DNA from: Massariosphaeria phaeospora
Lineage: Eukaryota; Ascomycota; Dothideomycetes; Pleosporales
DNA: 64,000 nt
Direction: 5' to 3'
Assembly (NCBI GenBank): GCA_011032825.1
Contig: JAADJZ010000019.1
Coordinates: 1 to 64,000 of the forward strand
Shown here: piece by piece, positions 858 to 43,255 of the stretch
How the letters are laid out: each line of letters starts with the position of its first letter
How positions within the stretch are numbered: the first letter of the stretch is position 1
Position numbers and translations under genes: made by a program
Notes under the pieces: generated by a model
Told to the model about the DNA's origin: nothing
Seen by the model: the letters and a program-made list of their open reading frames with translations, nothing else
Databases searched by the model: none

Positions 858-2635
858 ACGTAAAGTACTAGCGAACTCAACAAACTAGTAAACTTAACAA
901 AATATTTTAGCACAACCAACTTATCTTAAAAAATATTAAATTAATTGCTATTAAACAAGAAACCTGCGTACGTCGTGCTAGCATCTAATTTAAAAGCTTT
1001 TTTTATATTCTTTTAGCAAGTTTGGGTATTGTGCTTTGTATTACTATAGTTTCTACAAAGCCGTAGAGCTAGTTGTGCTCTTTCTTAACTCTTTTTACTA
1101 CGCGCTTTTTTTAATAGCTAAAGTGCTGTAAACGCTTTAGCAGCTACTTGCGCTAATCTATTACTATACTCTATTATGCTACTTGTTTAAATTTGCTTTT
1201 GTTTTTGTAATTTTCTTTTTGTTGCTTCTTTAATAGTTTTTTTAAAGCTAGAGATTTGATTGCGCATTAGTTTAACTTAATAGGCTATCTAGTAGAACTC
1301 TTTAACAAGCTAATTAACTCTATTCTTTAGAAATAATAGAAAGAAACCAAGCTTAGTAGTAATAAGCTTTAATTGCGATTTAAATTTAAGCGTATTGCTT
1401 GGAGTTTTTAACTGCTACGGCGTTTCTAGTGCAAAAAGTAGTAGCAAAGTACATAGTTGTACTTTAAGACAATTAAAAACTACTTACGCGTTAATAAGAA
1501 CTAGCTTTAAAGCTTTCTTTATTAATATAAAAAACGCGCTAGCGCGCTAAGTTTTAAACGGGTTGAAAGTACTTTAGCTTTAGCAGCGAAAAGCAAACTA
1601 CATCTAGCAGCTAAAAAATATAAAATAAATAAGCTAGCATGCAAAGCGTAAGAATTTCGTACTTAAAGCAATAGTTTTTAAAATTCTAAGATTAGTAGCT
1701 CTTATAGCCGTTTAAAATAAGTAGCTAATACTTTTCTACTTAACGCGCTTTTGTATGCGCGTTAAAATGCTTTAACTATTTAAAACTAAAAGCGTTGTTT
1801 GTCTAGCTGTTCTTAGAAACTAAAAGCTTTTAATTGCTAAGTATAAAGTTTTTCTCGTACTATGCTAAAATGTAAACGCGCTTTTTGTAGATAATAAATA
1901 GCAGAATCGCGTACTTTGCAGCGCAAATGCTTTGGATAACTATTACTTACTTCTAATTGCCTAGCTAGATAAGATTAAGTTAAGTACGTTTTTAAAAGCT
2001 TGTAACAACTTTTATAAACTTAATAATACTTATCTAGAAACTAGTTTTGTTAAAGTTGTGTATATTATTATTTTAGATGCTGTACTTAGCTTTAGTATCT
2101 CTAACAAGCTTAAACTACGCGCTAATTACTTTAGAATTTTCTTGTTGTATTCTTTGCTAGTTCTTTGCTTAATTAAAAGCTATTTTAAGCTTGCTTAAAC
2201 GCGTTACAAATCTCTTAGCCTAGTTTTTGCCTACTAGCTTTTTACTTTACGTAGCTACTAGTTTATTTTCTATATCTCTTACTTTAAATAGCCGAAAAGC
2301 AAATTCTCGCGAATTAAAGTTAAGAATATATTGAATAATTGTTTGCTTTTTAGTTGTAGTAAGCTTTAACAATGTAAGTTGTGTTTAAGCTTCAAATAAT
2401 TTTTTTTTAGCGCGTTTAGAAAGAGTATAGTGTTTAACGTTAAAAGCACTAGTAGTAGCTTAATAGCTTTAGAATTAGCTAAAATTCTAAGCTTTAAAAG
2501 TAAGCTAAAGTTTTTTTTCGTGTTAGTGTAATAACGCGTTAGTTAGTTAAAACATATTGCGTTAATAAAGAAAGTAGTAGTTTTGGCAAATTTTGTTAAG
2601 TTTACTAGTTTGTTGAGTTTGCTAGTGCTTTACGT
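858..2635 (-). mobile_element. Pogo/Fot1-like element A2, RIP-degraded
   Basis: This is a complete but heavily mutated type I pogo-like element of 1778 bp, flanked by TA at 856-857 and 2636-2637. The transposase reads on the minus strand, so its C-terminus lies at low coordinates. The body follows A3 (33538-35385) throughout; for example 1560-1620 is the reverse complement of the segment around the third catalytic Asp of A3. The termini carry ACGTA, then two 17-bp boxes (ACTAGCGAACTCAACAA and ACTAGTAAACTTAACAA at the left end). Stops are frequent and of TAG/TAA type. The known family role is cut-and-paste transposition into TA, and this copy is inactive. Confidence 0.87.
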
Positions 2636-2637
2636 TA

Positions 2638-3668
2638 CTACACTAAGCAGTTGTAAAGTATAAGTTAAAAAAAAAAACAGCTAGTAGAATTTTATTAGCG
2701 TTGCAAAAGTTTATAAACTTGCGCGTAAAGTAGCTACTATAGCTATTAACAAAAAGAAAGCGCTATTGCTAGCGCGCTTTTTGCTTTGTATAGCACTTAA
2801 ACAGCTGCTTAAGCTAAGCTAATTTAATATCGTTATTTGTTTATTTTAAAGTTGAGTTGGCTATAAATACTTAGTGTTTTCTAGCTTTAACGTTGTTAAC
2901 CTAGCTTAATTGCAAGCTAGCTTTTTTTTCGTAGATAAAAGCAAGTAGTAGCGCTTTACTATTAGCGCAAATACAAGCTAAAAGCGTAATCTATTTTCTA
3001 TTGCTATTTTGTATAGCCGCTGTACGCAGTTTTGCTTACTAAACTACTTTAAAAAAAACGCGTTTTAAGCGTGTAGTAATGCTAACAAAAAAGCTTTTTT
3101 TATTTATATTATAAGTGTTGCGCGCTTTAACGTCGTACTTTTGCATTTTTCTATGTAGTAGTTAAAAGTATAGGTTGTATTTCTTATGTAAGTTAGCTTA
3201 GTAACGATTGCAATTAATCTTAGCACTTTATTTAGTAGTAAGCTTAGCTTTATAGCAATGCAAAAAGCGCGAAACCTACGCATGTAAAGCTTTTTGTTTT
3301 GCAACTGCGCTAGCGAAATTTTGTACTATTTCTTTTATTAGTAGTAAGCTTTGCTTTGTGCATTTTTTTATGTACTTTACAAGTTCTTGCTTTTGTTGTA
3401 AATTAAGTAGTTGCCGTTGTTCTAATGCAGCTGTATAAAACTACGTTTTGCTTTTATACTATTGCAATAGTGTAGTGCAATTAATACTAAACTATTGCGC
3501 AATTTTGTAGTAAAAGAAAAATGTACTAGCTTTACACAATTCGATTGCTTTAATTGCAACTTTAATCAAGTTTATGTTAGTAGAAATGCAACGCGTTAAA
3601 GTTAAAATAATGCATATGTTTTAATGCGAAGTAGCTTATTAGCTATACTAGCTTATTTAGCGCACAGG
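2638..3668 (-). mobile_element. Pogo-like clade D element D1, N-terminal half
   Basis: This is part of a third pogo-like clade, read on the minus strand. It aligns by eye with 20560-21615 of D3: a middle portion near 2690-3000, then the N-terminal helix-turn-helix region at about 3313-3668, which also resembles 31488-31842 of D2. The C-terminal half lies beyond the A2/M5a/A1 block or is lost. The right end is approximate, and I see no clean TA duplication there. It is degraded by TAG/TAA stops. Confidence 0.6.
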
Positions 3669-3940
3669 CACTATATCTATTTTTATAAAAAAATTTAGTA
3701 GAAAAACTTTTAACATGCTCGCAATTAATTTGTATTATTTATATTTACGTAAAACGTTAATAGTGCAGCTACAAAAGTTAACTTTAAGTAGAGCAACTAG
3801 TATAGCTTCTAGAAACGCTGCGATAGCTATAGAGCTACTACCGCGTTTCTGTTGCTTATAAGCTAGTAAATAAGTAAAAGTTAAGTTAAAGTTGAGTTAG
3901 CTTACGTTAGATTTCAACTTAACTTTAGCTTTAACCTACG

Positions 3941-4449
3941 TGTTATCAAGAGTTTCTCTTACCAAAAGTACGAGTTATCGAACTCGAAGATTCCGCCTAA
4001 AGAATTGTTCTGTGTTCAAAAGGCTTGATAACAACAAAAAAACAATCTTAATTCTATTTTAGATAGAATAACAAAGTAACAATTTGTTGCCTATAGATCT
4101 AATCTATGTATGAAATGTACTTAGAAGAGTTAACTACAAAGAATCTAAACTGTAAAAGAAATCTTGCTAATCTATATAGTTCTATAATTCTTTGCTAAAA
4201 GCGTTTTGCTTTGCTTGCTTAGTGTGCTTAGCCTAAGCACACTAAGCGCCTCGAGCGTAGTTCTACTTAGTTTGCCAAGACTAAGCGCTATTCTGCTTAG
4301 TTCGCCAAGACTAAGCGCTATTACGTAACTGCTAACTTAACTCTGCTCTGCGCGTTTTCGTACTTCTATCTTGCAAACCTACGAGTTCTAACAACCTTTC
4401 TACGTTGTTGCTTAGTCTACGATACCTAGTATTGTTTCTATTTGTAACA
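3941..4449 (-). repeat. 3' LTR of G1-2
   Basis: The 509-bp repeat starts TGTTATCAAG and ends TTTGTAACA. It matches 17156-17664 with mostly transition differences. It contains the CTTAG/CTAAG motif array at 4218-4315, which is replaced by a different array in the G1-1 LTRs. Confidence 0.95.
4214..4325. promoter_or_regulatory. LTR motif array, CTTAG/CTAAG type
   Basis: Eight copies of CTTAG or its complement CTAAG lie at 4218, 4227, 4233, 4242, 4266, 4281, 4296 and 4311, arranged as inverted pairs. The first four form an almost perfect palindrome, and the last four form two tandem units with the spacer TTGCCAAGA or TCGCCAAGA. The same array is in the other LTR at 17433-17530. The position inside the LTR, the spacing and the symmetry suggest a protein-binding cluster. 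Function is inferred only. Confidence 0.55.
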
Positions 4450-4466
4450 TTATCTTTTTCTTTAAG
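4450..4466 (-). promoter_or_regulatory. Polypurine tract of G1-2
   Basis: Directly inside the 3' LTR the minus strand reads as a purine-rich run (complement of TTATCTTTTTCTTTAAG). This is where plus-strand DNA priming is expected in a minus-strand LTR element, so it supports the orientation. Confidence 0.6.
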
Positions 4467-4615
4467 AATATCGTTCTAATAGCTGTTCTACTATGCCGTG
4501 CTAGTTTCTTTTGTGCTTTGCATCAAAAGTGCTTTTTCGTATAAAAGTAAGTTAACTCTAATTCTCGTTGTGTCGTAGCTTTCTTTTGTATTTTTTTAAG
4601 TTTTTAAGTTTAACT

Positions 4616-5230
4616 ATGCCTAAGGCTTTCTTTTCTCCTATTGCTCTAGTAGGCAAATTAACTTGTCGTCGTTACAAACAAATTGCTTAGATTCGCGAAC
4701 GTAGTTGTAAAATGCTAAATCCCTATAGTCGTTGCTTAAAGAAAAGTCTTTAGTGTCTTGTAGAAGCATTGTCTAAGAAGTGTACTAAGTGTTTAAGCTT
4801 TAGTGCTTCTTGTAGGCTTGCGCTGTTTTTTAAAAAGTAAGCTGCGCTTTAGCAAAAGCGACGCAACCTACGCTATCGGCTTTTTGTAGTAAAAAGCCAA
4901 GCTGCTGCACTTCGTGCTAAGCTTTCTGCTATAGAAATAAAAAAGCACGTCCATCTATCTTAAGAGTAGATTGCGATTGAAGAGTTAGAACGAGCTAACT
5001 GCGAGGTCGCGCTTTCTAGAGCTTCTACGAGTTCTAAGAGTATAGTTTCTACTAATAGTCTTGCACTACTGCTACTCGAAACTTTTTCGACTAACCTAGG
5101 CTAGTTACAAACTAACTCTTCTCTACTCGCTTTTTTTTTTTTTGATTTTTCTACTTTTTTAGAGAACTTGGATTCTTTGCTTTTAGATTTCGCTAGTAAT
5201 ACTTCTGTACTAGTTCCTTGCAGTTTGTAA
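4616..5230 (+). pseudogene. Antisense accessory gene of G1-2, Zn2Cys6-like coiled-coil protein
   Basis: A 205-codon frame runs from ATG 4616 to TAA 5228-5230 on the strand opposite to gag-pol. It is broken only by TAG/TAA codons at apparent Gln positions. At about residues 38-66 it has the spacing C-x2-C-x6-C-x8-C-x2-C-x6-C, with the first Cys changed to Tyr, as in fungal binuclear zinc clusters. A Lys/Arg/Ala-rich, probably helical region follows. The last 60 to 70 codons overlap the end of the pol chromodomain on the other strand. G1-1 has an equivalent frame (23527-24144) with the same start, stop and cysteine spacing but a very different first two thirds. Accessory antisense genes of this sort are, from memory, found in other fungal Ty3 elements. 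Their function is unknown to me. Confidence 0.65.
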
Positions 5231-7346
5231 AATTCCGTATTAGTTCTCATGTATTCTAGCTCTCTAGCTATTTTTGCTATTTGACTATGTATTTCCACTA
5301 ACGTCTGAACTTTTGTAGGTTCTTAACTTCTTCGACTTCGTACTCTTTGTTTTTAAGTTTAATATTAGTTGCTACTTTAGCGTCTAGTAGTGCTAGTTTA
5401 AAAAGTAATTTGTAAAAAACTAAGTGTATGCGCATACTTGTAAGTAGCTATAGTTTAAATAATACAAGTTTCTTAACTTTTAGAATTTTGAATAGTTTTA
5501 TTTGGAAGTTGTTTAACTTGTTGCATAGTTGTTTAGTTTTTAGGTTTTTTTGTAAGAGAAAAACTCTATTTCTCTCTTTAAAAGTTAGTCTCTTAAGCTT
5601 TTTTTTATTTGCTAACTTAGCTGTCGTAAGGTTTCTTTAAGCAATTCGTTGGCTTAATTCGTTGTGTAATTCTCGCATTCTAGAAGCTTTGTTGTTTGCT
5701 ACTAGCAAAATGCTTTTAATATTCTTTAAATTCTAATAAGCTACTAGCTTATATCTATAGTTTGCGTAGTATAGCGAGTGTTCTATTGTCGTAAACCTTG
5801 TGCTGTTGTATGCTAATTGTGCTGTTAGCAAAAGTTTAACTTAGTTGTTTTGTAGCTTGTTAGTGTACATTTGTAAGTACTATTTTAGCGTTTAGTTTGT
5901 TCGTTTTGTCTAGCTGTTTGTTTGTAGGTGAAAGCTAGTTAATAGCTTCTTTACAACCTCTAACTAAGCTAGAAACGTATTTTAAAACTTTAATGTAAAC
6001 AGTTTGTTTCTATTAGTAATAAACTATTCTAGCAATTTGTAATTAGCAACAAGTGCTTTTGTAACTTCGTAAGCTATTTCTTCTGCTGTAATTAACTTTT
6101 CTGTTAGTACAAAATGTAATTCTTTGGTTAATTAATTTACAATTACCAAGATCGAGTTGCATAGCCGTGCTAATTTGAGTTTTAACAATTTTAAAAGCTT
6201 TACTATAAAATCTATTGTAACGCTAATCTATAAGCGTGCGAGTAGTTCTAGCAGTTAAAGTAGTCCGTAGAGCTTATGTTTCTTGAGTTTGTTTTTTAAA
6301 CAATCTAAACAGTTGCTTATTGCTTTTTAAACTATGTTTTGTACGTAGAGCATTAAGTACTCGTTTAAAATCTGTTAAACTATTTTGTTAATTTTTAAGT
6401 GTCTATATGCTTGTAAAGCATGTAATTTTTAAATAAGCTATATAGCTTAAGTGTTGTTTGTAACTATTTATCTTTGCTAGTTGTTTTTGCTTTATTTTTA
6501 GTGCATTCTTTTTTTAATGCTTGTAACTTTAGCTATTTTAGCTAATTGTAGTTAGTTGTATTTGAAGGTTTTGTCTAAGTTCCGTTGTAATACTAGGTCG
6601 TGCGTAACTAGTTTGTTAGTTTTTATAAAATCTAATTTTTAACTAAGCGCGTTTGCGGTTCTATTGTTAATTTCTTTGCGATAGTAAATTTTAATGTCGT
6701 AATCTACTATAAATTCGGCTTATTTAACTTGTTGTCTATTTAATTTCTTAGTTGTAGTAAAGCTAGTAAAGTTTTAATAATCTAAGTACACTTGTACTTA
6801 ATGCCTTAGTTCTTTTAGCTATGCTTTTTATTGTTCAAAAGCGTTTATTATTGCTAATAGCTTTTTATTGTAAACGTTGTAATTGAGTTTTACTCTTAAG
6901 AACTTTCTAGAATAGTAAAACATTAGTTTCTATTTTCTATTGTTGCATTGTTGTAATAGTATTGCTCTTAATGCGTAGTCTAAAGTATTAGTTTTTACTT
7001 AAGTTTTTTTTTTTAAGTTGTACATCTGTAGCATTGGTGCTATAGTAAACTTTTTTTTAAGTTCTTAAAACGCTTGTTCTAGTGCTTTTGTTTACTTAAA
7101 CTTTTTATTTTTTTTAGTAACTTCTAAAAGCAGTGTCGTAGTTTTAAAGTAATTTTTAATAAACTTTTAATAAAAGTTAGCAAATTTTAAGAAAAACTGC
7201 ACGTTTTGTACTATTTTAAGAGTTAGCTATTTTTATACAGTTTAAATTTTCTTTAAGTCTATAAACACACTTTCTTTTAAAATAATAAATTCTAAATAGC
7301 TAGTTTTTGTAACGTGAAATTTACATTTTTTTAAGTAAAGTAGTAG
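5180..7346 (-). pseudogene. G1-2 pol, downstream half: RNase H, integrase, chromodomain
   Basis: Read on the minus strand from 7346 downward, this is the end of reverse transcriptase, RNase H (about 6700-7000, with a degraded form of the KELLA(I/V) helix), integrase (about 5600-6500, with the LVIVD box near 6120-6180), the GPF/Y-like tail, and a chromodomain at about 5190-5340. The chromodomain shows EYEVEEV followed by a W(K/R)YIVK-type strand. Many TAG/TAA stops are present. The upstream half lies at 13928-17150, separated by G2-1. Chromodomains are known to guide chromoviruses to H3K9-methylated chromatin. Confidence 0.8.
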
Positions 7347-7351
7347 CTAGT

Positions 7352-7825
7352 TGTTACGATCAATAATCCGCTAAGCTGCTAAAAGAAGAAAATGCTTTTA
7401 CTTTAGCGCTTAAAGTAACAGAGTATAGCTATACCTTAGGTAAGCTTAGCACGTAAGCTAAGAACTTTTCTTAACAACACAGCTTTTTTATATGCTTTCT
7501 CTAATCTTACGCTCTCTATAGCACCTTAAGAGCAAAAGATTAAAGTGCTTTTATTAATCTAACGGCTTTGTAAGAGCAAGGAGATTATGCAAAGCACACT
7601 TACGTATATAGTTAAAACAATAAACTTTTATAGCTTATTGTTTTCAATTTCAATTACTTAAGTTGACTTTTACTTTGACTTTTATACTCTTTGCAGAACG
7701 AAGCTTGCTACTGCCTTAGTATCGAACGCTATACAACTTCTTTTTTAGTTTATCAAACTTACTTAATTCCTAAGAACTAACCTAAGCCTAATAAACGACT
7801 TTTCTAAGTTCGCTTAGCCTTTACA
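7352..7825 (+). repeat. 5' LTR of G2-1
   Basis: The 474-bp repeat runs from TGTTACGATC to CCTTTACA and matches 13449-13922. It contains inverted short motifs around 7435-7465 (CTTAGG, TAAGCTTAGC, GTAAGCTAAG). No clear tRNA primer-binding site survives just after it. Confidence 0.94.
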
Positions 7826-7959
7826 TATTAAAAACTTTTAAAATAAGTAATACTTTAATAACTACTTTTTTTTATACTTGCACTAGCAGTACGAAAGTAG
7901 CAAAGCTTAACTTCTACTATAGAAATCGCTTAAAGCTAGAAAACTAGTTACTTTAGTTT

Positions 7960-8750
7960 GACTTTTTTTTCAAGTTTGAAGATAACTACGTTAACAACGT
8001 TAACAAGGCATTTCTAATAGCTTCTTACATAAAAGAAATAGCTCTTAAGTAAGTTTAACTTTACTTAAAAAAGTACTTAGATAGCGACAACGACAAAGAC
8101 ATAATTACACGCATGTTTAAAAATCGCGCTGTGTTTAAAAACAAGCTGCAACAATTTTACGCGATCGCTAATAAACCTACTATCGCAGAAAAAACTATTT
8201 AACAAATGCGCTAGACTAAGTTAGCTAAAAACTACGCTAACCTATTTTAATAGTACTTTATCTAAACTAACTAAAACGACAAAGCACTTATGCGCATGTA
8301 CAAGCAAAAGCTAAAAAATAACGTTAAAGTAGAACTAATGCGCTTTAGAGCAGCTACAGACACTTTAGACAACTTAATTAAAGAATTAATCTGCTTTAAC
8401 AATAAGTTGTACAAACTCGCGATTAAAACGCGAGCCGAAGCAAGGTTCTACGTACTAAAGAGCAACAGAAGTTATACACTTAACACTAGCTAGCGTTAAG
8501 TACAAACTTAACACTTACGCCTAGCAAGCGTATACAACTTAGCTTAAAGATACAAACCTATGCACCTCAACAACTTTAACAAAAGCAAACTAATTAATAG
8601 ACAATCAAAGTATAGCAAAGAAACAAGGACCTGCTATAATTGTAGCAAACTAGGCTACATTTCTAGCAACTGTTACTAGAAGAACAAAGTTGTTTAGCAG
8701 TTGAACGTACTGTCTAATACTACAAGTAGTATTGATAAAGAATAAAAAGT
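7960..8750 (+). pseudogene. G2-1 gag with CCHC zinc knuckle
   Basis: The plus-strand reading gives a capsid-like region (about 7970-8480) and then a zinc knuckle at 8632-8676 of form C-x2-C-x4-Y-x4-C. Tyr stands where the family has His (CAC to TAC, a RIP-type change). The segment at 8290-8493 is the longest uninterrupted piece, beginning MRMYKQKLKNN, and has a near-identical counterpart at 49991-50194 in G2-3. Stops elsewhere are TAA/TAG. Gag packages the element RNA into virus-like particles; this one is not functional. Confidence 0.82.
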
Positions 8751-9599
8751 AATTACTTTTATAGATGTTAAGAGTTAGAGAGAATAGTTGCCTAAAGAAA
8801 CAAGTTTAGCTAAAAGAAAATTGCTTTGTAACGATACTAACTCTTTAATAGACAAAGAATACGAGTTACTAGACAAGCAACCAAACTTACTAAATACTAC
8901 AAAACATCGAAACTAGATTATTAAAGAAAAACGAGTACAAAGAATCTATTAATCTAACACTTTACTTTGAAACAATGTACCTAATTACGACGAAGCAGTG
9001 TAGAGATATCTTAACGAGCCCAACTAATAGCTTACAAAAAAAATAAACAAAGAATCTATTAAAAGCTTAAGAAAGCAAGACGCTCTAAAGAAAACATTTT
9101 ACTTTTAAATCTAAACGAATTGGCTACTAAGAAACACTAGCACGATAAAGTAGCAAAAGAATTTTAACGATGCTTTAGAAAGAAACGCGACAACGCGAAC
9201 TCTTACAAACTATAGTACTACTTAAACTACTAAAATCTAGAACACGCGAAAATGTTATAGACAGTGTGCTTTTACAATTACTATTTTACTTACTACTTAA
9301 ACAAGCAAAGCACAAAATAGTTCTCTAAAAGAAAAAGCCAATTCTGCTTTTAAAAGTAGTTTGACTGCAAGAACGACACTTGCGAATACTACTTATAAAA
9401 CAAACGCAACATACTGCACTTCTTTAGAAAAAACAACTTAGCAAAACTACTTGCAATGCAAATGCTTGTAAACAACAACTGCACTTAAGCTTAATAGCAA
9501 ACCTGCTTACACTCTAACTACGCACAGCATTAGACTTTTAAAAAAGCTAACGAATTTGGTATAGATTCTTTTTTAAGCTAGCAACGCCTAACCTCGAAG

Positions 9600-12500
9600 T
9601 TAAACAAATTAACGTAATTAACTTAGCAAAACAAATTAAGCTCTTAGTAAAGCTTAACGGTTACTTAATAAAAGCCTTAATCGACATAGAAGCACAGAAT
9701 AACTTTGTTTTCGCTTAAGCAGTGTTTGTAGCTGGTTTACACCTACTAGAGAAATAACAGCTCTATCTACTTGCTAGTGCCAATAGATAGCTTATACGAG
9801 CGCAACTAGTAGTTACACATAAAATACGTAATGTACTATTGCACATCAAACAACACTAAAAGAAGTTAGCTTTCAACGTTTTTAAACTAGCTATCTACGA
9901 CATTATTTTAAAACTTTTCTAGTTAAGAAAGCATAATTTCTAGATTAACTAGAGAAGAAACACGCTTTTACTAGAGTGTTGTAAGAATAGCGCTTCTAAC
10001 ACTATGCCTACGCATTAGCAAAGTTTAATAGCAAATAAAAAAACAATTAACGTAATTGCATTGACAAAGAATAGCTTTAAAACACAAAGGTTTAACTCAA
10101 CAGATACCAACTCAAAGCTTTTAGATTAACAAGTTAGAGTAAAGAAAAAAATTAGCGCACTTTTAGGAATACTCTACGAGTACAAAAAGTTTAGATATTT
10201 CTTTTAAAAAGTAGTAAATGCAGAAGCATTACTAAAACACAAACTTTAAAACCACAAAATCGTCTTACAAGAAAGAAAGCAACTAACTTTTAGCTTAATT
10301 TACAGACTATTAAAAAAAAAGTTAAGCACGCTTCGCAATTACATTAGAAATAACTTAAAAAAAAGTTACATACAACTATTATAGTTACTTGCAGAATACC
10401 TAATTATTTTTGTACTAAAGAAAAACAGCGTATTACAACTATGCGTTGACTTTTAAAAGCTCAACAACATTACAGTTAAAAATCAATACTTTCTACTAAA
10501 TATTATAGAATTACAGGATTGATTATTTTACGCAAAAGTCTTTACAGCGCTTAACCTACAGGATAGTTACTACCTTATTAAAATTAAAAAAAGTAAAAAA
10601 TAGAAAACAGCGTTCTGAACGAGATACAAATATTACAAATACACTGTTATGCTATTTAAGCTTACAAATGCCTTAGCAACTTTTTAAAAGCTTATTAACA
10701 ACGTGTTGAGAATGCACTTAAACATCTTTATCGTTGCTTATCTAGACAACATCTTTATTTATTTTAAAACTTAAAAAAACTATGTTGAACATGTTAAAAC
10801 AGTGCTAAAGTGCTTTAACAAGTTTAACTTTTAACTTAAACTAAAAAAGTGCGAATTTTACAAGCGCAAAGTTGCATTTTTTAGATACGTAGTAGAAGCA
10901 AACGGAGTACGCATAAGCGAAAACAAGATTAAAGTAGTTAAAAAATAGCTACAACTTAAGAACGTTAAAGAAATACAATTTTTCTTAAAGTTTCTAAACT
11001 TTAACTAACAGTTTATTAAAGATTACTTGAAAATTGCTATACTTTTGACAAAGCTTACGCGAAAGAATACAACCTTCGCATAAAGCAAAAAAGTAAAAAA
11101 AGCTTTCTAATAGCTTAAAAACGCAAGCATTAGCTTACTATGCTTCTAGATATTTCAAGCAAAACAACTTTTACGCTTTAAAACTAATGCGTTAGATCTC
11201 GCACTAAGAAAATGTACTAGTTAATTGCACAAAAACAAATAGCACTCTATTGCTTATTACTTAAGCAAGTTTTTAAAACTTAAAGAACAATACAACGTGC
11301 ATGACAAAAAGCTGCTAGCTATTGTTGCATACTTACAGCATTAAAGAGTATACGCAGAAAGCTGCTTAAAACTTACAATATTTACGAATTACAAGAACTT
11401 AGTTAATTTCACAACTACTAAAGTACTTAACTAAAAGCAGGTTAGATAGTTAGAAATGCTAGGCTAGTACAAGTTCAAGATTGTGTACACACTAAAAAAA
11501 AATAACAGCAAAGCTAACGCTTTTAGCCGAAAACATAATATTGCTAGAACAAAGAAAATTATCAACACCGCGATACTTAAGGTTAACTAAAACGAATTAC
11601 TAAAACTAGCTAGAACGCTAAATGTGCTCTTAAAAACTGCAATTACAGTTTTAAAAAAATTGCAAGAAGCAATTATACAACAACATTACGATAACCTAGT
11701 TCATAGTTACTCTAGAATAACACAAACAATAAAACTTATCAAATAAAACTACAAGTTTAGCAGAATAAAAAACAAAGTTACTGCAATTATTAAGAAATGT
11801 GCAAACTGTTAGAAAAACAAACACAGTACCTACGCACAATACAAAAAAATGCAAGCTATAAAGCTACTAAATAAGCTTTAGACTAATATCTCTATAGATT
11901 TCGTAACAAGATTGCTTTTGTTAAAGGACCTTGCTATAGAAATAGCCTACAACGCTATTATAGTTATAGTCAACCGATTTACTAAGTACGCAGAAATAAT
12001 ACCTTTTAAGAACACGTACACTGTACAACAACTAGAATTCATTTTTCTAAATCAACTTATTAGATACTATAGAATACTTAAATTAATTATTAGTAACAAA
12101 AACAAGCTCTTTACATTAAACTATTAGACAACTCTGTTAGCCGCAATTAAAACAAAACGCAAGCTATTAACAGCGTATTATCTACAAACAAATAGATAAA
12201 CAGAAAGAACAAATTAAACTATAAAAACATATCTAAAGATATACAGCAACGAACGACAAACTAATTAAGTAAAGCTTCTACTAATAGCACAGTTAGCGTA
12301 TAACAACAAGTTGTTAGAACTTACAGAACAAACACTGTACTACGCAAATTACAAGAAACACTTATATTTTTTTAAAAAAACGCTTTTAAGCGCGAAAGCT
12401 AAAACTGCTACAAAAGTAGTAAAAGAGCTTAAAAAAGTACATAAGTTACTACAAAGCAAACTTAAAATAGCGCAACGCTAAAGCATCTTATATGTTAACT

Positions 12501-12906
12501 AAAAACAAAAAATAGCACTTTAGCTAAAAAGAGGGAATAGAGTTTATCTCTTTACAAAGAATTTGCGCACTAAACAACTAAGCAAAAGTCTAGACAACGT
12601 TAAAGTCAAACTATTTTTAATATTAGAGCAACGAAGCCTAGTTAATTATAAATTAAACTTGCTTAAAGACGCAAAGATCTATCTAGTATTCTACATATTC
12701 TTGTTAGAACTAGCTAACCTACAAACGCTACTCTAGCGAACCTTTCGCTATAAAACCGAAAAAGAAAACAAATTTAAAGTTAAAAAGATTATCGCACACT
12801 AAGTTGTAAATAACTAAGAAAAATACCTAGTCAAATAGTTAGGCTACTTAGACAGCGAGAATACATAAGAACTAGACACGAACTTTACAAACTACTACTA
12901 GATTCT
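9600..12906 (+). pseudogene. G2-1 pol: protease, RT, RNase H, integrase, chromodomain
   Basis: Domains in order: an aspartic protease with its catalytic Asp retained at 9683-9685 but the DSGA box altered; reverse transcriptase about 10380-10900, with the YxDD box reading Tyr-Leu-Asp-Asn at 10739-10750; RNase H about 11200-11480; integrase with an HHCC-type region about 11690-11815, first catalytic Asp at 11897-11899, the second Asp box altered, and the TER(T/V)N box near 12200; then a chromodomain about 12765-12895 (VKKIIAH... YLVK.LGYLDSENT). The longest clean stretch is 11912-12127 in the integrase core. Stops are TAG/TAA at Trp or Gln positions. The order PR-RT-RH-IN defines Ty3/gypsy. Confidence 0.9.
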
Positions 12907-12953
12907 AGCACAGTATCGATAAAACTAGTTAGGTACAACGAAACGTTGCTTTT

Positions 12954-13325
12954 TTACACTTCGTTACTAAGGCTATCTAACGCACTCTAGGTAAAAAGAA
13001 ATATTGCTAGACTATTAAAAGAACTCGCAGTTGCTTCTTGCTATTCTAGCAACGAGATGCTCGCTTTTTTGACTGCGATTGCTTTCGCCGCACGCTTTGC
13101 ATTTTCGCGCAGCGCTTGCTTAACTTTTGCTGCTTCTTTCTTTACTACTTTTAGCTAAGCCTAAAAACGCTTGCGCTTCTAACAAATAAGCACTTATTTA
13201 CTTTTTAAAATCTAAATATTATAGTTCTTAAGATTTTAACGATTACACTTATTACACTGTCTTGAACGAACATGCACTTTGCAAACTAAGCTCGCAAAAC
13301 AACAGCTTTAGCAAGCAACAGGCAT
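12954..13325 (-). pseudogene. Antisense accessory gene of G2-1, Zn2Cys6-like
   Basis: A 124-codon frame runs from ATG at 13325 to TAA at 12954 on the minus strand, opposite to pol and converging with it without overlap. It is interrupted only by TAG/TAA codons. Near the N-terminus the cysteines are spaced C-x2-C-x6-C-x8-C-x2-C-x7-Y; the last Tyr probably replaces Cys. A long Lys/Ala/Glu-rich, probably coiled-coil segment follows (residues about 65-100). G2-3 has the same 124-codon frame at 42884-43255 with mostly transition-type differences. The layout matches the G1 accessory gene, so the module is shared by two element families. Confidence 0.65.
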
Positions 13326-13430
13326 AATGTTTCTAAATAAGTTAATAAATATTGCAAAGTTAAAACGTTGTGTAGTACTGTTAGAGAAAAAGGCTTTTGG
13401 CATAGCAAAAAGAAGCTTCGAGGACGAAGC

Positions 13431-13448
13431 ATAAAAAGAGAGAAATAG
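13431..13448 (+). promoter_or_regulatory. Polypurine tract of G2-1
   Basis: A purine run (ATAAAAAGAGAGAAAT) directly precedes the 3' LTR, as expected for a plus-strand element. Confidence 0.7.
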
Positions 13449-13922
13449 TATTACAATTAATAATTCGCCAAGCTGCTAAAAGAAGAAAATGCTTTTACTT
13501 TAGCGCTTAAAGTAACAAAGTACAACTATACCTTAGGTAAGCTTAGCACGTAAGCTAAGAACTTCTCTCAACGACACAGCTTTCTTATATGCTTTCTTTA
13601 ATCTTACGCTCTTTGTAGCACCTTAAGAGTAAGAGATTAAAGTGCTTTTATTAATCTAACGGCTTTGTAAGAGCAAGGAGATTATGCAAAGCACACTTAC
13701 GTATATAGTTAAAACAATAAACCTTTATAACTCATCGTCTTTAATTTTAATTACTTAAGTTGACTTTTACTTTGACTTTTATACTCTTTGCAAAACGAAG
13801 CCTGCTACTGCCTTAGTATCGAACGCTATACAACTTTTTCTTTGGTCTATCAAACTTACTCAATTCCTAAGAACTAACCTAAGCTTAATAAACAACTTTT
13901 CCAAGTCCGCTTAGCCTTTACA
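13449..13922 (+). repeat. 3' LTR of G2-1
   Basis: This 474-bp partner of 7352-7825 has the same length and transition-type differences. It ends CCTTTACA directly before the CTAGT duplication. Confidence 0.94.
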
Positions 13923-17155: not shown

Positions 17156-17664
17156 TGTTATTAGAGGTTTCTTTTACTAAAAGTACGAGTTATTAGACTT
17201 AGAGATTCTGCCTAAGGAATTGTTCTATGTTCGAAAAGCTTGATAACAACAAAAAAACAATCTTAATTTTATTTTAGATAGAATAACAAAGTAACAATTT
17301 GTTGCCTATAGATTTAATCTATGTATAAAATGTACTTAGAAGAGTTAACTACAAAGAATTCAAATTATAAAGAAAATTCTGCTAATCTATATAGTTCTAT
17401 AATTCTTTGCTAAAAGCGTTTTGCTTTGCCTACTTAGTGTGCTTAGCTTAAGCACACTAAGCGCTTTAAGCGTAGTTCTACTTAGTTTGCTAAAACTAAG
17501 CGCTGTTCTACTTAGTTCGCCAAGACTAAGCGCTATTACGTAACCGCTAACCTAACCTTGCTTTGCGCGTTTTCGTACTTCTATTTTGCAAACTTGCGAG
17601 TTCTAACAACTTTTCTACGTCGTTGCTTAGTTTACGATACCTAGTATTGTTTTTGTTTGTAACA
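17156..17664 (-). repeat. 5' LTR of G1-2
   Basis: This 509-bp partner of 3941-4449 starts TGTTATTAGAGG, ends TTTGTAACA and is followed by CTACG. Its motif array is at 17433-17530. Confidence 0.95.
17433..17530. promoter_or_regulatory. LTR motif array, CTTAG/CTAAG type (second copy)
   Basis: This is the same inverted CTTAG/CTAAG arrangement as at 4214-4325, with a few transition changes. One spacer reads TTGCTAAAA instead of TTGCCAAGA. Confidence 0.55.
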
Positions 17665-17748
17665 CTACGCTAGTTACTAAGTAGCTTAAGTTAAAGTAGT
17701 TAAAGCTTAAAGTTGTAGTTAGGTTTTACATAATATTTACAACTTATA

Positions 17749-22859: not shown

Positions 22860-23360
22860 TGTTATTAGAAGTGTTCTCTTACCGAAGGTAATTACGATTA
22901 GACTCGAAAATTCTGCCTAAGAAATTGTTCTATGTTCGAAAAGCTTGTTAACAACAAAAAAACAATTTTAATTCTATTTTAAATAGAATAACAAAGTAAC
23001 AATCTGTTGCTTATAAATCTAATCTATGTATAAAATGTACTTAAAAAAGTTAACTACAAAAAATCTAAATTATAAAAGAAATTCTGCTAATCTATATAGT
23101 TTTTTAATTCTTTGCTAAAAGCATTTTGCTTTGCTTGCTACGTTTTGCTACGCCGTAGTACTTGTAGCGCTTGTAGCAACTATTGCTTAGTATGCTACGT
23201 GCTAAAGCTTTGTAGCACTCGTAGCGCGTTACGTAACTTTTGCTAACCTAATTCTACTTTGCGCGTTGCTGTACTTTTGTCTTGCAAATTTGCAAGCTTT
23301 AACAACTCTTTTGCGTTGTTGCTTAGTTTACAATACTTAGTATTGTTTTTGTTTGTAACA
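22860..23360 (-). repeat. 3' LTR of G1-1
   Basis: The 501-bp repeat runs from TGTTATTAGAAG to TTTGTAACA and matches 29490-29990. A pyrimidine run just inside it (23361-23378) is the complement of a minus-strand polypurine tract. Confidence 0.95.
23137..23225. promoter_or_regulatory. LTR motif array, GCTAC/GTAGC type
   Basis: Seven copies of GCTAC or its complement GTAGC lie at 23137, 23147, 23164, 23173, 23194, 23212 and 23221, in inverted pairs. The array occupies the LTR position that holds CTTAG/CTAAG motifs in G1-2. The second LTR has the same array at 29767-29855. Protein binding is inferred. Confidence 0.55.
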
Positions 23361-23526
23361 TTATTTTTTTCTTTAAAAATATTGTTTTAATAGCTGTTTT
23401 GCTGTGCTGTGCTAGTTTTTTTTGCGTTTTGCATCAAAAGTGCTTTTTTGTATAAAAGTAAGTTAACTCTAATTCTCGTTGTGTTGTAACTTTTTTTTGT
23501 ATTTTTTTAAGTTCTAAAGTCTAACT

Positions 23527-24144
23527 ATGCTTAAAGTTTTTGTATTTTTTTTTGCAAAGTTAACTGTTTGTAAGCACGCTTGTTTTGCGCGTATTCGTGC
23601 AATAGATTACTTTGTAGCGAAGCCTTGCCGTTGCTGCTTGTTAAAGAGTCTAAAGTATTTTTTTTCGCCTAAAAGAACTTGTTAAGACTGTATTTCTTCT
23701 AGCTTAGTGTGCAGTTTTTTTTTTTTTAAAAAAAAGTTTGCTGCTGTTGCTAAGAAACAGCGGTTTCTACGTTAAAAGCTTTTTGCAGTAGAGTTTTAAA
23801 AGCTTAAAATTCGTTAGCGAGTTTTAGAGCTTCGGGCTTAAGTTAACGCAGCTGTTAGTAAAAAGAAAAAGTTGTTTGCTCGTAAGCTAGCAACGATTGA
23901 AAAAATAAAACGTTTTAAGAAAGCGCAGTCGAGCGCTTTTTTCAATTCTAAAAGTACAGCTTCTACTAATAGTCTTATACTGCTACTACTCGAATTGTTT
24001 TTAGCTAACTTAGGCTAGTTACAAACTAACTTTTCTCTGCTCGCTTTTTTTTCTTTTAATTTTTTTGCTTTTTTAGAGAACTTGGATTCTTTGCTTCTAG
24101 ATTTTGCTAGTAATATGCTCGTACTAGTTTCTTGTAGTTTGTAA
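23527..24144 (+). pseudogene. Antisense accessory gene of G1-1, Zn2Cys6-like coiled-coil protein
   Basis: A 206-codon frame runs from ATG 23527 to TAA 24142-24144, opposite to gag-pol, with only TAA/TAG interruptions. The cysteine block at about residues 36-64 has the spacing C-x2-C-x6-Y-x8-C-x2-C-x6-C, where the Tyr is probably a mutated Cys. A Lys-rich, probably helical stretch follows. The last 60 to 70 codons are nearly the same as in G1-2 (4616-5230) and overlap the pol chromodomain on the other strand. Upstream of that the two proteins share little but cysteine spacing and basic character, although the DNA just before the ATG is almost identical. Confidence 0.65.
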
Positions 24145-27100
24145 AATTCCGTATTAGTTTCTATGTATTCTAGCTTTTTAGCTATTCTTGCTATTTGACT
24201 AAGTATTTCTACTAACGTTTAAACTTTTATAGGTCTTTAATTTCTTCGGCTTTATACTTTTTGTTTTTAAGTTTAATATTAGTTGCTACTTTAGCGTCTA
24301 GTAGTGCTAGTTTAAAAAGTAATTTGTAAAAAACTAGATGTATGCGCATGCTTGTAAGTAGTTGTAGTTTAAATAATACAAGTTTTTTAACCTTTAGGAT
24401 TTTAAATAGTTTTATTTGAAAGTTGTTTAACTTGTTGCATAGTTGTTTAGTTTTTAGGTTTTTTTGTAAGAGAAAAACTTTATTTCTCTCTTTAAAAGTT
24501 AGTTTCTTAAGCTTTTTTTTATTTGCTAACTTAGCTGTTGTAAAGTTCTTTTAAGCAATTCGTTAGCTTAATTTGTTGTATAATTTTTGCATTTTAAAAG
24601 CCTTGTCATCTACTGCTAGCAAATTGCTTTTAATATTTTTTAAATTTTAATAAGCTACTAGCTTATATCTATAATTTGCGTAGTAAAGCGAGTATTTTGT
24701 AGTTGTAGATCTTGTGCTGTTGTAAGCTAATTGTACTATTAGCAAAAGTTTAACTTAGTTGTTTTGCAACTTGTTAGTGTACATTCGTAGATACTATTCT
24801 AGTATTTAGTTTATTCGTTCTGTTTAGCCGTTTGTTTGCGAGTGAAAGCTAGTTAATAGCTTTTTCGCAACCTCTAACTAAGCTAGAAACGTATTCTAAA
24901 ACTTTAATGTAAACAGCTTGTTTCTGTTAGTAATAAACTGTTCTAGCAATTTGTAATTAGCAACGAGTGCTTTTGTAACCTCGTAAGCTATTTCTTTTAC
25001 TGTAATTAATTTTTCTGTTAGTACAAAATGTAATTTTTTAGTTAATTAATCTACGATTACCAAGATTAAGTTGCATAGCCGTGCTAATTTAGGTTTTAAC
25101 AATTTTAAAAGCTTTACTATAAAGTTTATTGTAACGCTAATCTATAAGCGTGCGAGTAGTTCTAGTAGTTAAAGTAATTCGTAGAGCTTGTATTTTTTAG
25201 GTTTGTTTTTTAAACAATCTAAATAGTTGCTTACTACTTTTTAAACTATGTTTTGTACATAAAGCATTAAGTACTCGTTTAAAATCTGTTAAACTATTTT
25301 GTTAATTTTTAAGTGTCTATATGCTTGTAAAGCATGTAATTTTTAAATAAGCTATATAGCTTAAGTGTTGTTTGTAACTATTTATCTTTGCTAGTTGTTT
25401 TTGCTTTATTTTTAGTGCATTCTTTTTTTAATGCTTGTAACTTTAGCTATTTTAGCTAATTGCAGTTAGTTGTATTCGAAGGTTTTGTCTAAGTTCCGTT
25501 GTAATACTAAGTCGTGCGTAACTAGTTTGTTAGTTTTTATAAAATCTAATTTTTGACTAAGCGCGTTTGCGGTTCTATTGTTGATTTCTTTGCGATAGTA
25601 AATTTTAATGTCGTAATCTGCTATAAATTCGGCCTATCTAACTTGTTGTCTATTTAATTTCTTAGTTGTAGTAAAGCTAGTAAAGTTTTAATAATCTAAG
25701 TACACTTGTACTTAATGCCTTGCTTTTTTTAGCTATGCTTTTTATTGTTCGAAAGCGTTTATTATTGCTAATAGCTATTTATTGTAAACGTTGTAATTGA
25801 GTTTTACTCCTAAGAACTTTCTAGAATAGTAAAACATTAGTTTTTATTTTCTATCGTTGCATTGTTGTAATAGTATTGCTCTTAATGCGTAGTCTAAAGT
25901 ATTAGTTTTTACTTAAGTTTTTTTTTTTAAGTTGTACATCTGTAGCATTAGTGCTATAGTAAACTTTTTTTTAAGTTCTTAAAACGCTTGTTCTAGTGCT
26001 TTTGTTTACTTAAACTTTTTATTTTTTTTAGTAACTTCTAAAAGCAGTGTCGTAGTTTTAAAGTAATTTTTAATAAACTTTTAATAAAAGTTAGCAAATT
26101 CTAAGAAAAACTGCACGTTTTGTACTATTTTAAGAGTTAGCTATTTTTATATAGTTTAAATTTTCTTTAAGTCTATAAACACACTTTCTTTTAAAATAAT
26201 AAATTCTAAATAGCTAGTTTTTGTAACGTGAAATTTACATTTTTTTAAGTAAAGTAGTAGCTAGTACTGCTTTATTTTCTGTAGCACTTTTTTAACATGT
26301 TTCTAATGTTCTTTAAGCGTTTTTTTAGAGTATATTAATACGTTGTCTAAGTACGCTATAACAAAAATGTCTAAGTATTTGTATAGTGCTTTGTTAATTA
26401 AGGCTTAAAACGTAGCTAAGGCATTAGTTAATCTAAATAGCATAACCTAGTACTTATAAAGTTTATATCGAGTTTTAAAAGCTGTTAACTATTCGTGCTC
26501 TTTTGCAATTTTAATGCGATAGTATCCGTCTCGTACGTTAAGTTTTGTAATTTATTTTACTTTTTAAAGTTAATCTATAAGCTTTTAAATAAGCGGTAGT
26601 AATTATTAGTTTTTTTGTGTAACGTTGTTAAGCTGTTGATAGTTTACGCATAGTTTCAATTCTTTGTTTTTTTTTAGTACAAACAATATTAGCGATGCTA
26701 TTAAACTTTTGCTTAGTTGTATGTATTCTCGCTAGATATTTCTTTAAATGTACTTTATTAATTTCTTCTGCTAGTCGTAGATTAAGAGATACATTAGTTT
26801 TAGTCGCAGTTTCGTTCCTTTCTTAAAGATAATTTTATAATTTTATTTTTAGTAGTTTGCTAAGTTGTGCTTTTTGTTTTTTTTAAAAAAGCTTTTAAAC
26901 TCTGTTTAGTATTTAGTAAAAAAGTTTTTAAACTTTTTTTTTTGTTTTTTTAAAAGGTTGAATTGCGGTTTGCTCGTTTTTAAAGGCGCAACTTGTTGTA
27001 TCTATATAACTTCTATTTGCTAAAAGTTTTTTTTACAAATTCTCGCAATTCTGTAAAGTAAAATTAAACTAATTCTTTTGTTCTTAAGTAAGCTCTAAAT

Positions 27101-29480: not shown

Positions 29481-29489
29481 TAGTTAACG

Positions 29490-29990
29490 TGTTATTAGAA
29501 GTGTTCTTTTACTAAAGGTAATTACAATTGAACTCGAAGATTCTGCTTAAAGAATTGTTCTATGTTTAAAGAGCTTGTTAACAACAAAAAAACAATTTTA
29601 ATTCTATTTTAAATAGAATAACAAAGTAACAATTTGTTGCCTATAGATCTAATCTATGTATAAAATGTACTTAAAAGAGTTAACTACAAAGAATCTAAAT
29701 TGTAAAAGAAATTCTGCTAATCTATATAGTTTTTTAATTCTTTGCTAAAAGCATTTTGCTTTGCTTGCTACGTTTTGCTACGCCGTAGCACTTGTAGCGC
29801 TTGTAGCAACTGTTGCTTAGTGTGCTACGTGCTAAAGCTTCGTAGCACTCGTAGCGCGTTACGTAACTTTTGCTAATCTAATTTTACTTCGCGCGTTGCT
29901 GTACTTTCGTCTTGCAAACTTGCAAGCTCTAACAACTTTTCTGCGTCGTTGCTTAGTCTACGATACCTAGTATCGTTTTTGTTTGTAACA
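29490..29990 (-). repeat. 5' LTR of G1-1
   Basis: This 501-bp partner of 22860-23360 ends directly before ACTAG and contains the GCTAC/GTAGC array at 29767-29855. Confidence 0.95.
29767..29855. promoter_or_regulatory. LTR motif array, GCTAC/GTAGC type (second copy)
   Basis: This is the same seven-motif arrangement as 23137-23225, here with CGCCGTAGCAC adding an eighth GTAGC. Confidence 0.55.
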
Positions 29991-42760: not shown

Positions 42761-42883
42761 CTATTTCTTTTTTGTTATGCTTCGTTCTCGAAGCTTTCTT
42801 TTGCTATGCTAAAAGCTTTTTCTTTTAACAGTACTACACAACGTTTTAACTTTGCAATATTTATTAACTTGTTTAGAAACATT

Positions 42884-43255
42884 ATGCTTGTTGCTTGCTA
42901 AAGCTATTGTTTTGCAAGCTTAGTTTGCAAAGTGCATGTTTGTTTAGAATAGTGTAATAAGTATAATCGTTGAAATCTTAAGAACTATAATATTTAGATT
43001 TTAGAAAATAAATAAGTGCTTATTCGTTAAGAGCGCGAGCGTCTTTAGGCTCGGCTAAAAGTAGTAAAGAAAAAAGTAGCAAAAGTTAAGCAAGCGCTGC
43101 GCGAAAATGCAAAGCGTGCAGCAGAAGCTATCGCAGTTGAAAAAGCAAGCATTTTGTTGCTAGAACGGCAAGAAGCGACTGCAAGTTTTTCTAATAGTCT
43201 AGCAATGTTTTCTTTTACCTAGAGTACGTTAAATAGCTTTAGTAACAACGTATAA
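42884..43255 (+). pseudogene. Antisense accessory gene of G2-3, Zn2Cys6-like
   Basis: The same 124-codon frame as 12954-13325, here on the plus strand because the element is inverted: ATG 42884, TAA 43253-43255, interrupted only by TAG/TAA. The cysteine block is more damaged (C-x2-Y-x6-C-x8-C-x2-Y). The Lys/Ala/Glu-rich helix is retained (KQALRENAKRAAEAIAVEKA). It is nearly the same protein as in G2-1, in contrast to the G1 pair. Confidence 0.65.

What the first reader, a model, noticed from the sequence alone, without database searches (positions are those of the whole stretch)
4214..5040. Two linked segments are swapped between otherwise near-identical G1 elements: accessory gene and LTR motif array
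G1-2 and G1-1 align well, with mostly transitions, except in two places. (1) Right after the accessory ATG (4619 versus 23530) similarity collapses and returns only at about 5037/23949. (2) In the LTR, a CTTAG/CTAAG array (4218-4315, 17433-17530) is replaced by a GCTAC/GTAGC array (23137-23225, 29767-29855). In G2, where both copies have the same accessory protein, the LTRs are also the same. This suggests that the antisense Zn-cluster protein recognises the motif array of its own LTR and that the pair changes together, as an element-specific regulatory or anti-silencing system. Plant VANC proteins and their target motifs are a known analogy. The function is inference.
Basis: partly seen in the sequence, partly recalled or inferred. 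Interest (0 to 1): 0.9.

Follow-up and report, generated by a model that had tools for sequence, protein, structure and literature searches.

The report
Retrotransposon's matched regulator and LTR switch
Copies of one retrotransposon in a likely fungal genome share almost everything except two nearby pieces, a backwards-running gene predicted to make a DNA-binding regulator and a row of short motifs in the end repeats that it would bind, and the two pieces changed version together in every copy where both could be read, which suggests each version likely keeps its own private on-switch.

Summary
G1 is a RIP-damaged Ty3/Gypsy element whose accessory gene runs antisense between pol and the 3' LTR. 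In 67 of 67 copies where both pieces could be read, the LTR array and the accessory N-terminus, clustered separately with transitions ignored, fall into the same six versions (A, B1, B2, C, D, E). Outside them A and B1 copies differ about as much as A copies do among themselves, and 0 of 209 pol and gag-side sites separate them. Even the roughly 295-bp linker between the pieces is nearly shared: B1 against B2 differ there by 0.5% (transversions plus gaps), but by 10.7% in the array and 7.5% in the N-terminus. Synonymous transversions indicate old alleles on a young backbone. The swapped module is a predicted Zn2Cys6 cluster plus coiled coil; the acidic tail stays. Best reading: an element-encoded Gal4-like factor with matched LTR arrays, exchanged as pairs. 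Binding, activation and any anti-silencing role are untested. Against it: A, C and D share one half-site spelling, and the linker partly tracks version. Closest known: VANDAL VANC with its motif arrays, and antisense brtn of Botrytis Boty.

The parts
3941..4449 (.). G1-2 left LTR (3' LTR of the element, whose pol is on the minus strand)
   Evidence: TSD CTACG at 3936-3940 and 17665-17669
4213..4318 (.). A-version motif array in the left LTR (GCTTAG/CTAAGC half-sites; the GC-richer copy L013 reads GCTCRG/CYGAGC)
4319..4615 (+). linker: rest of the LTR and antisense promoter region, nearly shared between versions A-D; TATAAAAG at 4540
4616..5036 (+). swapped module of the accessory gene, A version: predicted Zn2Cys6 cluster and coiled coil (broken by stops)
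5037..5230 (+). constant C-terminal tail of the accessory gene, Ser/Asp/Phe-rich
17156..17664 (.). G1-2 right LTR with A-version array at 17428-17533
22860..23360 (.). G1-1 left LTR
   Evidence: TSD ACTAG
23133..23226 (.). B1-version motif array (CTACG/CGTAG half-sites)
23227..23526 (+). linker; TATAAAAG at 23451
23527..23948 (+). swapped module of the accessory gene, B1 version (broken by stops)
23949..24144 (+). constant C-terminal tail of the accessory gene
26204..26674 (-). reverse transcriptase (RVT_1) of G1-1, opposite in strand to the accessory gene
29490..29990 (.). G1-1 right LTR with B1-version array at 29763-29856

Best explanation
The G1 copies read here each carry one of six matched pairs, made of an antisense gene for a predicted Gal4-like (Zn2Cys6) transcription factor and an LTR array of its likely binding half-sites, set into an element body that is otherwise largely shared. 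Shown: the two pieces switch together in every copy where both could be read, the rest of the element does not follow them (A against B1), and the modules are old coding alleles with the substitution pattern of purifying selection. Inferred: the protein likely binds as a coiled-coil dimer to repeated half-sites in U3 of its own LTRs, and the constant acidic/aromatic tail likely activates gag-pol from the 5' LTR and the accessory gene itself from the 3' LTR side. Inferred: pairs move between elements by recombination (template switching in mixed particles or gene conversion); copies whose regulator and array do not match would lose self-activation and leave no progeny, so only matched pairs are seen. 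A new pair would escape titration by the many dead arrays in the genome and avoid switching on competitors.
For: Co-switch: 67 of 67 copies, arrays and N-termini clustered separately. Searches agree on copies not fetched: with the E query (40 of 315 candidates scored) 4 of 4 elements that have the E array before an accessory gene also have the E N-terminus, two of them not fetched, and the other accessory elements listed match the linker plus short end pieces only; with the A query (40 of 308 scored) the 8 matches over array and N-terminus, the window copy included, carry both. Not lineage: A against B1 transversions outside the two pieces are about those within A; 0 of 209 informative sites at element positions 2000-6630 separate A from B1 at r2 above 0.8; a divergent gag-side stretch comes in two forms that both occur in A and in B1. 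Not mere linkage: with gaps counted, B1 and B2 linkers differ by 0.005 (0.007 and 0.003 within), arrays by 0.107 (0.004 and 0.000 within) and N-termini by 0.075 (0.010 and 0.007 within); a two-site linker haplotype crosses versions (B1 4 of 25, B2 1 of 12, D 3 of 3). Array and N-terminus distances correlate at 0.87 in 52 copies, 0.83 given linker and downstream flank, 0 of 2000 permutations; 0.86 in 65 copies. Old alleles under constraint: synonymous transversions 16.8 per 170.5 opportunities (B1/B2) and 34.2 per 151.5 (A/C); omega on transversions 0.10-0.38 for related pairs. Protein: cysteine pattern over 18 sequences; AlphaFold2 gives two short helices after the CxxC pairs and a 76-residue helix; 14 of 14 Foldseek hits are Put3, Gal4, Pho7, Leu3, Lac9 or Ppr1 DNA-binding domains; three relatives are named Zn(2)-C6 fungal-type by UniRef. 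Sites: arrays are direct and inverted repeats of a 5-6 bp half-site with 9-10 bp steps.
Against: No binding or expression data. Versions A, C and D share the half-site spelling GCTYRG although their N-termini differ strongly (C against D 0.33), so the code is not one protein, one word; RIP may hide original differences. Array and N-terminus trees disagree at depth (array: C near D; N-terminus: C near A, D near B). The linker does track version in part: r 0.56 with array and 0.48 with N-terminus, A against B1 linkers 0.028 against 0.014 and 0.007 within (gaps counted), and the right part of the LTR and the promoter are far more uniform within B1 (0.001-0.004) than between (0.015). In version E part of the promoter is swapped too (0.10 from the others). 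E motif enrichment is weak (4 TTCTA/TAGAA in L076, 14 of 500 shuffles reach it; 2 in L074, 162 of 500). In D against B1 arrays transversions favour half-site columns clearly in one of four pairs (14 of 63 against 3 of 34) and little in three. Pfam Zn_clus is below its cut-off in the 8 of 14 scanned proteins that list it and absent in 6 (best 20.2 against 21); no Foldseek hit reaches E 0.001. The RIP-damaged D copy L073 has tyrosine at the sixth cysteine. Activation by the tail is read from composition only.
Confidence: 0.77

Rival explanations
1. Linkage only: array, linker and N-terminus travel as one block because they lie about 300 bp apart, with no functional match.
For: The linker correlates with version (r 0.56 and 0.48); version E carries its own promoter stretch; A and B1 linkers differ more between than within.
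Against: B1 and B2 linkers are as alike between as within while both pieces differ; linker variants cross versions (B1, B2, D for one; A, C, D for another); 39 of 67 copies have an equally near linker in another version. A block transfer would carry the linker's divergence along.
Confidence: 0.15
2. Two or more old element lineages that diverged along their whole length.
For: N-termini are anciently diverged.
Against: A/B1 transversions outside the two pieces are about the within-A values; 0 of 209 pol and gag-side sites separate A from B1.
Confidence: 0.03
3. Fast adaptive divergence in place of both pieces within a young family, without exchange.
For: The flanks are young and the pieces differ strongly.
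Against: Synonymous sites in the N-terminus are more diverged than its amino acid sites (omega on transversions 0.10-0.38 for related pairs, 0.64-0.66 for the most distant), far above flank divergence.
Confidence: 0.04
4. The accessory protein is a repressor or anti-silencing factor of its own LTR, not an activator.
For: VANC proteins of plant VANDAL elements bind tandem motif arrays and cause loss of DNA methylation (abstract and one section read).
Against: No VANC domain (DUF1985, DUF287) was listed in the Pfam scans of 14 proteins; the constant tail is acidic and aromatic like activation domains (recalled comparison).
Confidence: 0.25

Closest known systems
VANDAL VANC anti-silencing proteins and their target motif arrays (Arabidopsis; PMC5735166: abstract and one results section read)
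   Same: Element-encoded protein, element-specific short motifs in tandem repeats in non-coding parts, motif and protein both variable between related elements.
   Different: DNA transposon, not LTR element; other protein family; here whole modules are exchanged on a shared backbone and the array sits in the LTR.
brtn, antisense gene of Boty Gypsy-type elements of Botrytis cinerea (Zhao et al. 2011, not held; mentioned in passages of PMC8365987, PMC4227169 and PMC5987419)
   Same: Antisense extra gene of a fungal Gypsy-type element; a PMC8365987 passage notes that one consensus lacks the beginning of brtn but keeps a putative ORF, which could be the same N-terminal exchange.
   Different: No passage seen names a zinc cluster in BRTN, an LTR motif array or matched switching; relation by sequence not tested.
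Antisense ORFs between pol and 3' LTR of plant LTR elements (Retand, Grande; passages of PMC11963269 and PMC7264820)
   Same: Position and strand; Retand TRP28 predicted to bind DNA; tandem repeats nearby.
   Different: Other protein domain; no matched LTR array in the passages seen; function unknown.
Foamy virus Tas/Bel1 transactivator (recalled, no call)
   Same: Retroelement-encoded protein that binds its own LTR directly and specifically.
   Different: Sense orientation, unrelated protein, no exchange of modules known to me.
Fungal Zn2Cys6 regulators (Gal4, Put3, Leu3, Pho7)
   Same: Cysteine pattern, two short helices, coiled coil after the cluster, half-sites in repeats.
   Different: Host genes; here element-encoded, highly divergent, below the Pfam cut-off.

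Membership tests
Ty3/Gypsy LTR retrotransposon | LTRs with TG...CA ends and short target duplication | tested here: met
   TGTTAT...TAACA, 5-bp TSDs CTACG and ACTAG
Ty3/Gypsy LTR retrotransposon | reverse transcriptase upstream of integrase in pol | tested here: met
   In relatives, e.g. contig C13: RVT_1 29044-29523(-), Integrase_H2C2 28045-28206(-), accessory 26355(+); likewise C4, C29 and C1 copies (all capped lists); the integrase of G1-1 itself was not listed
Zn2Cys6 transcription factor | six cysteines C-x2-C-x6-C-x5..12-C-x2-C-x6..8-C | tested here: met
   five columns invariant, the sixth at 90% or more over 18 sequences (15 of 18 relatives found plus three of this genome); four relatives have extra residues in one spacing; L073 lacks the sixth; spacing rule recalled
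Zn2Cys6 transcription factor | Pfam Zn_clus PF00172 above its cut-off | tested here: not met
   listed below cut-off in 8 of 14 proteins scanned, best P0006 20.2 bits against 21; so called predicted Zn2Cys6-like, not filed as a Pfam member
Zn2Cys6 transcription factor | fold of the DNA-binding domain | tested here: inconclusive
   14 of 14 Foldseek hits are Zn2Cys6 domains but none has E at or below 0.001
Zn2Cys6 transcription factor | sequence-specific DNA binding | not testable with these tools
   needs a binding assay
VANC anti-silencing system | element-encoded protein with element-specific motif arrays that vary in step | tested here: met
   67 of 67 matched; that the protein targets the arrays is inferred
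VANC anti-silencing system | VANC protein domains (DUF1985, DUF287) | tested here: not met
   not listed in the Pfam scans
VANC anti-silencing system | loss of DNA methylation on targets | not testable with these tools
   no methylation data
Boty brtn antisense gene | antisense gene of a Gypsy-type element | tested here: met
   accessory on + strand, RVT_1 on - strand
Boty brtn antisense gene | sequence relation to BRTN | not tested
   no BRTN sequence was at hand; no hit carries that name

The most novel reading that the evidence does not exclude
A retrotransposon specificity locus: the element population recombines freely except for a regulator/LTR-array pair kept as six or more anciently diverged, always matched alleles, like a self-recognition system of a selfish element. 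New specificities pay because they escape the decoy arrays of dead copies and, in version B, because the half-site CTACG contains no CpA on either strand and so is spared by RIP: it is intact in 138 of 184 (B1) and 60 of 66 (B2) site-copies, against 0 of 68 (A) and 2 of 90 (C) for GCTCRG.
Probability: 0.4. Interest if true: 0.95.

Novelty: new variant of a known kind. Interest (0 to 1): 0.86.

Why it matters
Antisense accessory genes of plant LTR elements were described as of unknown function (PMC7264820 passages). Here genome sequence alone ties such a gene, in a likely fungal element, to a cis array: a predicted transcription factor and its likely sites switch as matched cassettes. It gives a natural series of domain swaps in which protein-DNA specificity can be read by evolution, a clear way for a transposon subfamily to gain independence from its relatives, and a possible route by which RIP shapes regulatory motifs.

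Tried and rejected
Two diverged lineages: rejected for A and B1. The copy at C1:1839313 looked like an A/B recombinant (88% like A over query 101-419), but L018 has B1 array and B1 N-terminus. A first clustering that counted only transversions put all copies in one group because gaps absorbed the differences; redone with gaps counted. A block of linked sites in the downstream flank of L011, L013, L014 and L033 looked like a second backbone; I take it for insertion junctions, did not prove that, and did not use it as backbone evidence. The within-A downstream value of 0.050 is likely inflated by these. Pfam, PDB sequence search and literature gave no retrotransposon-encoded Gal4-like protein. 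A motif search for the integrase zinc finger in G1-1 found nothing.

Rows dropped: of 72 copies (2 in the window, L009-L078) five were left out of the pairing count because the upstream LTR is missing or cut or could not be delimited (L016, L038, L058, L075, L077). In some searches five further linkers (L049, L050, L052, L053, L069, the GC-rich copies) had been skipped by a score filter; one search repeats the linker comparison with all 67 and agrees. L002-L008 repeat later loci and were not counted. One search lists 150 match rows from 177 candidates, some of them pieces of one copy; those outside the fetched loci were not read. In one search I aligned 15 of 18 relatives found (P0008, P0012, P0013 left out). 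In one search the reference copies and L049 were not counted.

Full report
What is there. The window is contig 11, bases 1-64000, of a 42-Mb genome in 51 contigs. It is AT-rich, full of nested LTR elements, and copies differ mostly by transitions with many TAG/TAA stops, the mark of RIP; that, and relatives from Zopfia and Pyricularia, make it likely fungal, though the source is not named. G1 is a Ty3/Gypsy element: TG...CA LTRs of about 500 bp, 5-bp target duplications, reverse transcriptase on the minus strand (G1-1 26204-26674) and, in four relatives compared, integrase downstream of it. The accessory gene is on the plus strand, so antisense, next to the left LTR, which is the element's 3' LTR. 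A TATAAAAG lies 76 bp before its ATG in both window copies.

The observation.

Genome-wide test. I fetched 70 loci found by three searches with window pieces and one with an accessory protein (lists capped). With the two window copies this makes 72; 67 allowed both pieces to be read. To be blind to RIP, I counted only transversions and gaps. Arrays and N-termini were clustered separately. They fall into the same six groups: A 9 copies, B1 25, B2 12, C 16, D 3, E 2, with no mismatched copy; the nearest neighbours by array and by N-terminus agree in version for 67 of 67. At the finest threshold the A arrays split by number of 30-bp units (76, 106, 136 bp) and two truncated N-termini (L017, L051) stand apart; neither crosses versions. 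At coarser thresholds B1 and B2 merge on both sides, and at the coarsest array threshold C and D arrays merge while their N-termini do not. Searches extend this: with the E query (40 of 315 candidates scored) 4 of 4 elements that have the E array before an accessory gene also have the E N-terminus, while the other accessory elements listed match the linker plus short end pieces; three LTRs with the E array but no gene match are also listed. Where both LTRs of an element were found, they carry the same array (10 of 10).

Not two lineages. Along G1-1 coordinates, A against B1 transversions are 0.4-2.5% outside the two pieces and are about those within A; within B1 the right part of the LTR and the promoter are more uniform (0.1-0.4% against 1.5% between). 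Three gag-side windows reach 5-10% and are variable within versions as well. Of 209 informative sites between element positions 2000 and 6630 none separates A from B1 at r2 above 0.8; the 11 separating sites lie in the two arrays (4 and 4), the linker (1), the N-terminus (1) and the stretch 1088-2000 after it (1). The form at 5330-5600 comes in two types, each with A and with B1 copies; with the type at 6080-6600 all four combinations occur among B1 copies, so the elements have recombined.

Not just linkage. The linker between array and gene has 11 purine/pyrimidine columns and 4 gap columns with a minor state in 3 or more of 67 copies (16 columns in the earlier set of 64). A two-site haplotype (RCGYACTAGC) occurs in B1 (4 of 25), B2 (1 of 12) and D (3 of 3; a fourth D copy, L075, lacks it), and another variant in A (3 of 9), C (12 of 16) and D (2 of 4). 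With gaps counted, B1 and B2 linkers differ by 0.005 (0.007 and 0.003 within), while arrays differ by 0.107 (0.004 and 0.000 within) and N-termini by 0.075 (0.010 and 0.007 within). In the linker, 39 of 67 copies have an equally near copy of another version. Array and N-terminus distances correlate at r 0.87 in 52 copies, 0.83 after removing linker and downstream flank; 0 of 2000 permutations reach the former; r is 0.86 in 65 copies. On the other side, linker distance correlates with array at 0.56 and N-terminus at 0.48 (0.45 and 0.49 without E), A and B1 linkers differ by 0.028, and version E has a partly different promoter (about 0.10 from all others), so some hitch-hiking is real.

Age and constraint. 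Between B1 and B2 pieces that read open as they stand (L050, L053), 16.8 of 170.5 synonymous transversion opportunities are used, against 13.2 of 629.5 non-synonymous (omega 0.21; 0.10 for L049/L054; 0.36 within B2; 0.38 for A/C; 0.64-0.66 for the two most distant pairs; no transversion between L049 and L050). The B1-B2 linker value of 0.004 per site without gaps is about 0.002 per opportunity. So the modules are old, were selected as protein-coding in this frame, and sit on a young shared body. That fits exchange by recombination, not fast change in place.

The protein. The native open frame of L053 (211 residues) has C34, C37, C44, C52, C55 and C62, a long coiled coil, and a tail SSFDFSAFLENSDSLPLDF. 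The swap covers about the first 140-148 residues; the tail is recognisable in copies of A, B1, B2, C and D and its first residues in E, where the fetched piece ends. The open B1 copies L049 and L050 leave the frame before the tail as they stand. AlphaFold2 with 8 sequences gives mean pLDDT 70 and pTM 0.40, two short helices (35-40, 53-57) and one helix 68-143. The 14 Foldseek matches are Zn2Cys6 domains, best E 0.26. Pfam Zn_clus stays below its cut-off in 8 of 14 proteins and is not listed in 6. In 5.8 billion proteins relatives are few (12 and 14 hits, the second query among them; only the best candidates scored), mostly on short metagenome contigs, with three named Zn(2)-C6 fungal-type by UniRef; the search with L053 alone found one. 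Across 18 sequences P33 and five of six cysteines are invariant and the sixth is at 90% or more; four relatives have extra residues in one spacing, and the RIP-damaged D copy L073 has tyrosine at the last position.

The arrays. Half-sites in the GC-richer copies: GCTCRG in A (L013) and C (L069), CTACG in B1 and B2 (L050, L053); D is only known in RIP-damaged form, GCTTAG; E has TTCTA/TAGAA, weakly enriched. Half-sites stand in direct and inverted order with 9-10 bp steps. D and B1 arrays have the same length; their right parts align without gaps and three of four half-sites there read GCTTAG-type in D and GCTACG-type in B1, while the left parts need gaps. Transversions concentrate in half-site columns in one of four D/B1 pairs and little in the other three. 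B half-sites have no CpA on either strand and survive RIP (138 of 184 and 60 of 66 kept) while GCTCRG does not (0 of 68 and 2 of 90). The reference copy for A, L013, may itself be unusual.

How it likely works. The protein would bind its array as a dimer. The array lies in U3 if the LTR is read in element sense (inferred from position; no transcript data), where it could drive gag-pol from the 5' LTR, and about 300 bp upstream of the accessory ATG at the 3' LTR, where it could drive the accessory gene: a self-activating loop. A mismatched recombinant would lose the loop. This explains why recombination reaches the linker yet no mismatch is seen. Activation is inferred from the tail; repression or anti-silencing stays open.

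What is known. VANDAL elements have VANC proteins and fast-changing motif arrays (PMC5735166, abstract and section on target evolution read). Antisense genes are known in plant LTR elements (passages) and in Botrytis Boty as brtn (original paper not held; passages in three papers). I found no report of a retrotransposon-encoded zinc-cluster factor with matched LTR arrays in the searches (listings); subscription papers are mostly not held. I rate it a new variant of a known kind.

Noticed in passing
G1-1 element positions 5330-5600 and 6080-6600 (window about 28190-28460 and 28940-29460): Two stretches near the 5' side come in divergent types (about 11% and 7-11% transversions) that recombine with each other; the first is shared by versions A and B1. 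Possibly a second allelic system of the element.
   Followed up: partly
window 4213-4318; L012, L014, L015, L017: A-version arrays vary by whole 30-bp units (76, 106, 136 bp).
   Followed up: no
window about 13405-12900 (minus) and 42806-43300 (plus): G2 also has an antisense frame starting MPKAFF (MLKAFS in the second copy) with a C-x2-C pair and a helix-rich stretch; it may be a distant member of the same accessory family.
   Followed up: no
L074, L076: In version E about 30 bp of the promoter just before the TATA box is replaced too, so its cassette is wider.
   Followed up: partly
L050, L053 arrays: CTACG half-sites lack CpA on both strands and are mostly intact in RIP-damaged copies, unlike GCTCRG.
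   Followed up: yes
PMC8365987 methods passage: One Botrytis BcGypsy1 consensus lacks the beginning of brtn but keeps a putative ORF, possibly the same N-terminal exchange in another genus.
   Followed up: no
window 7352-13922 inside G1-2: A G2 element is inserted in G1-2, so G1-2 is older than that insertion.
   Followed up: no
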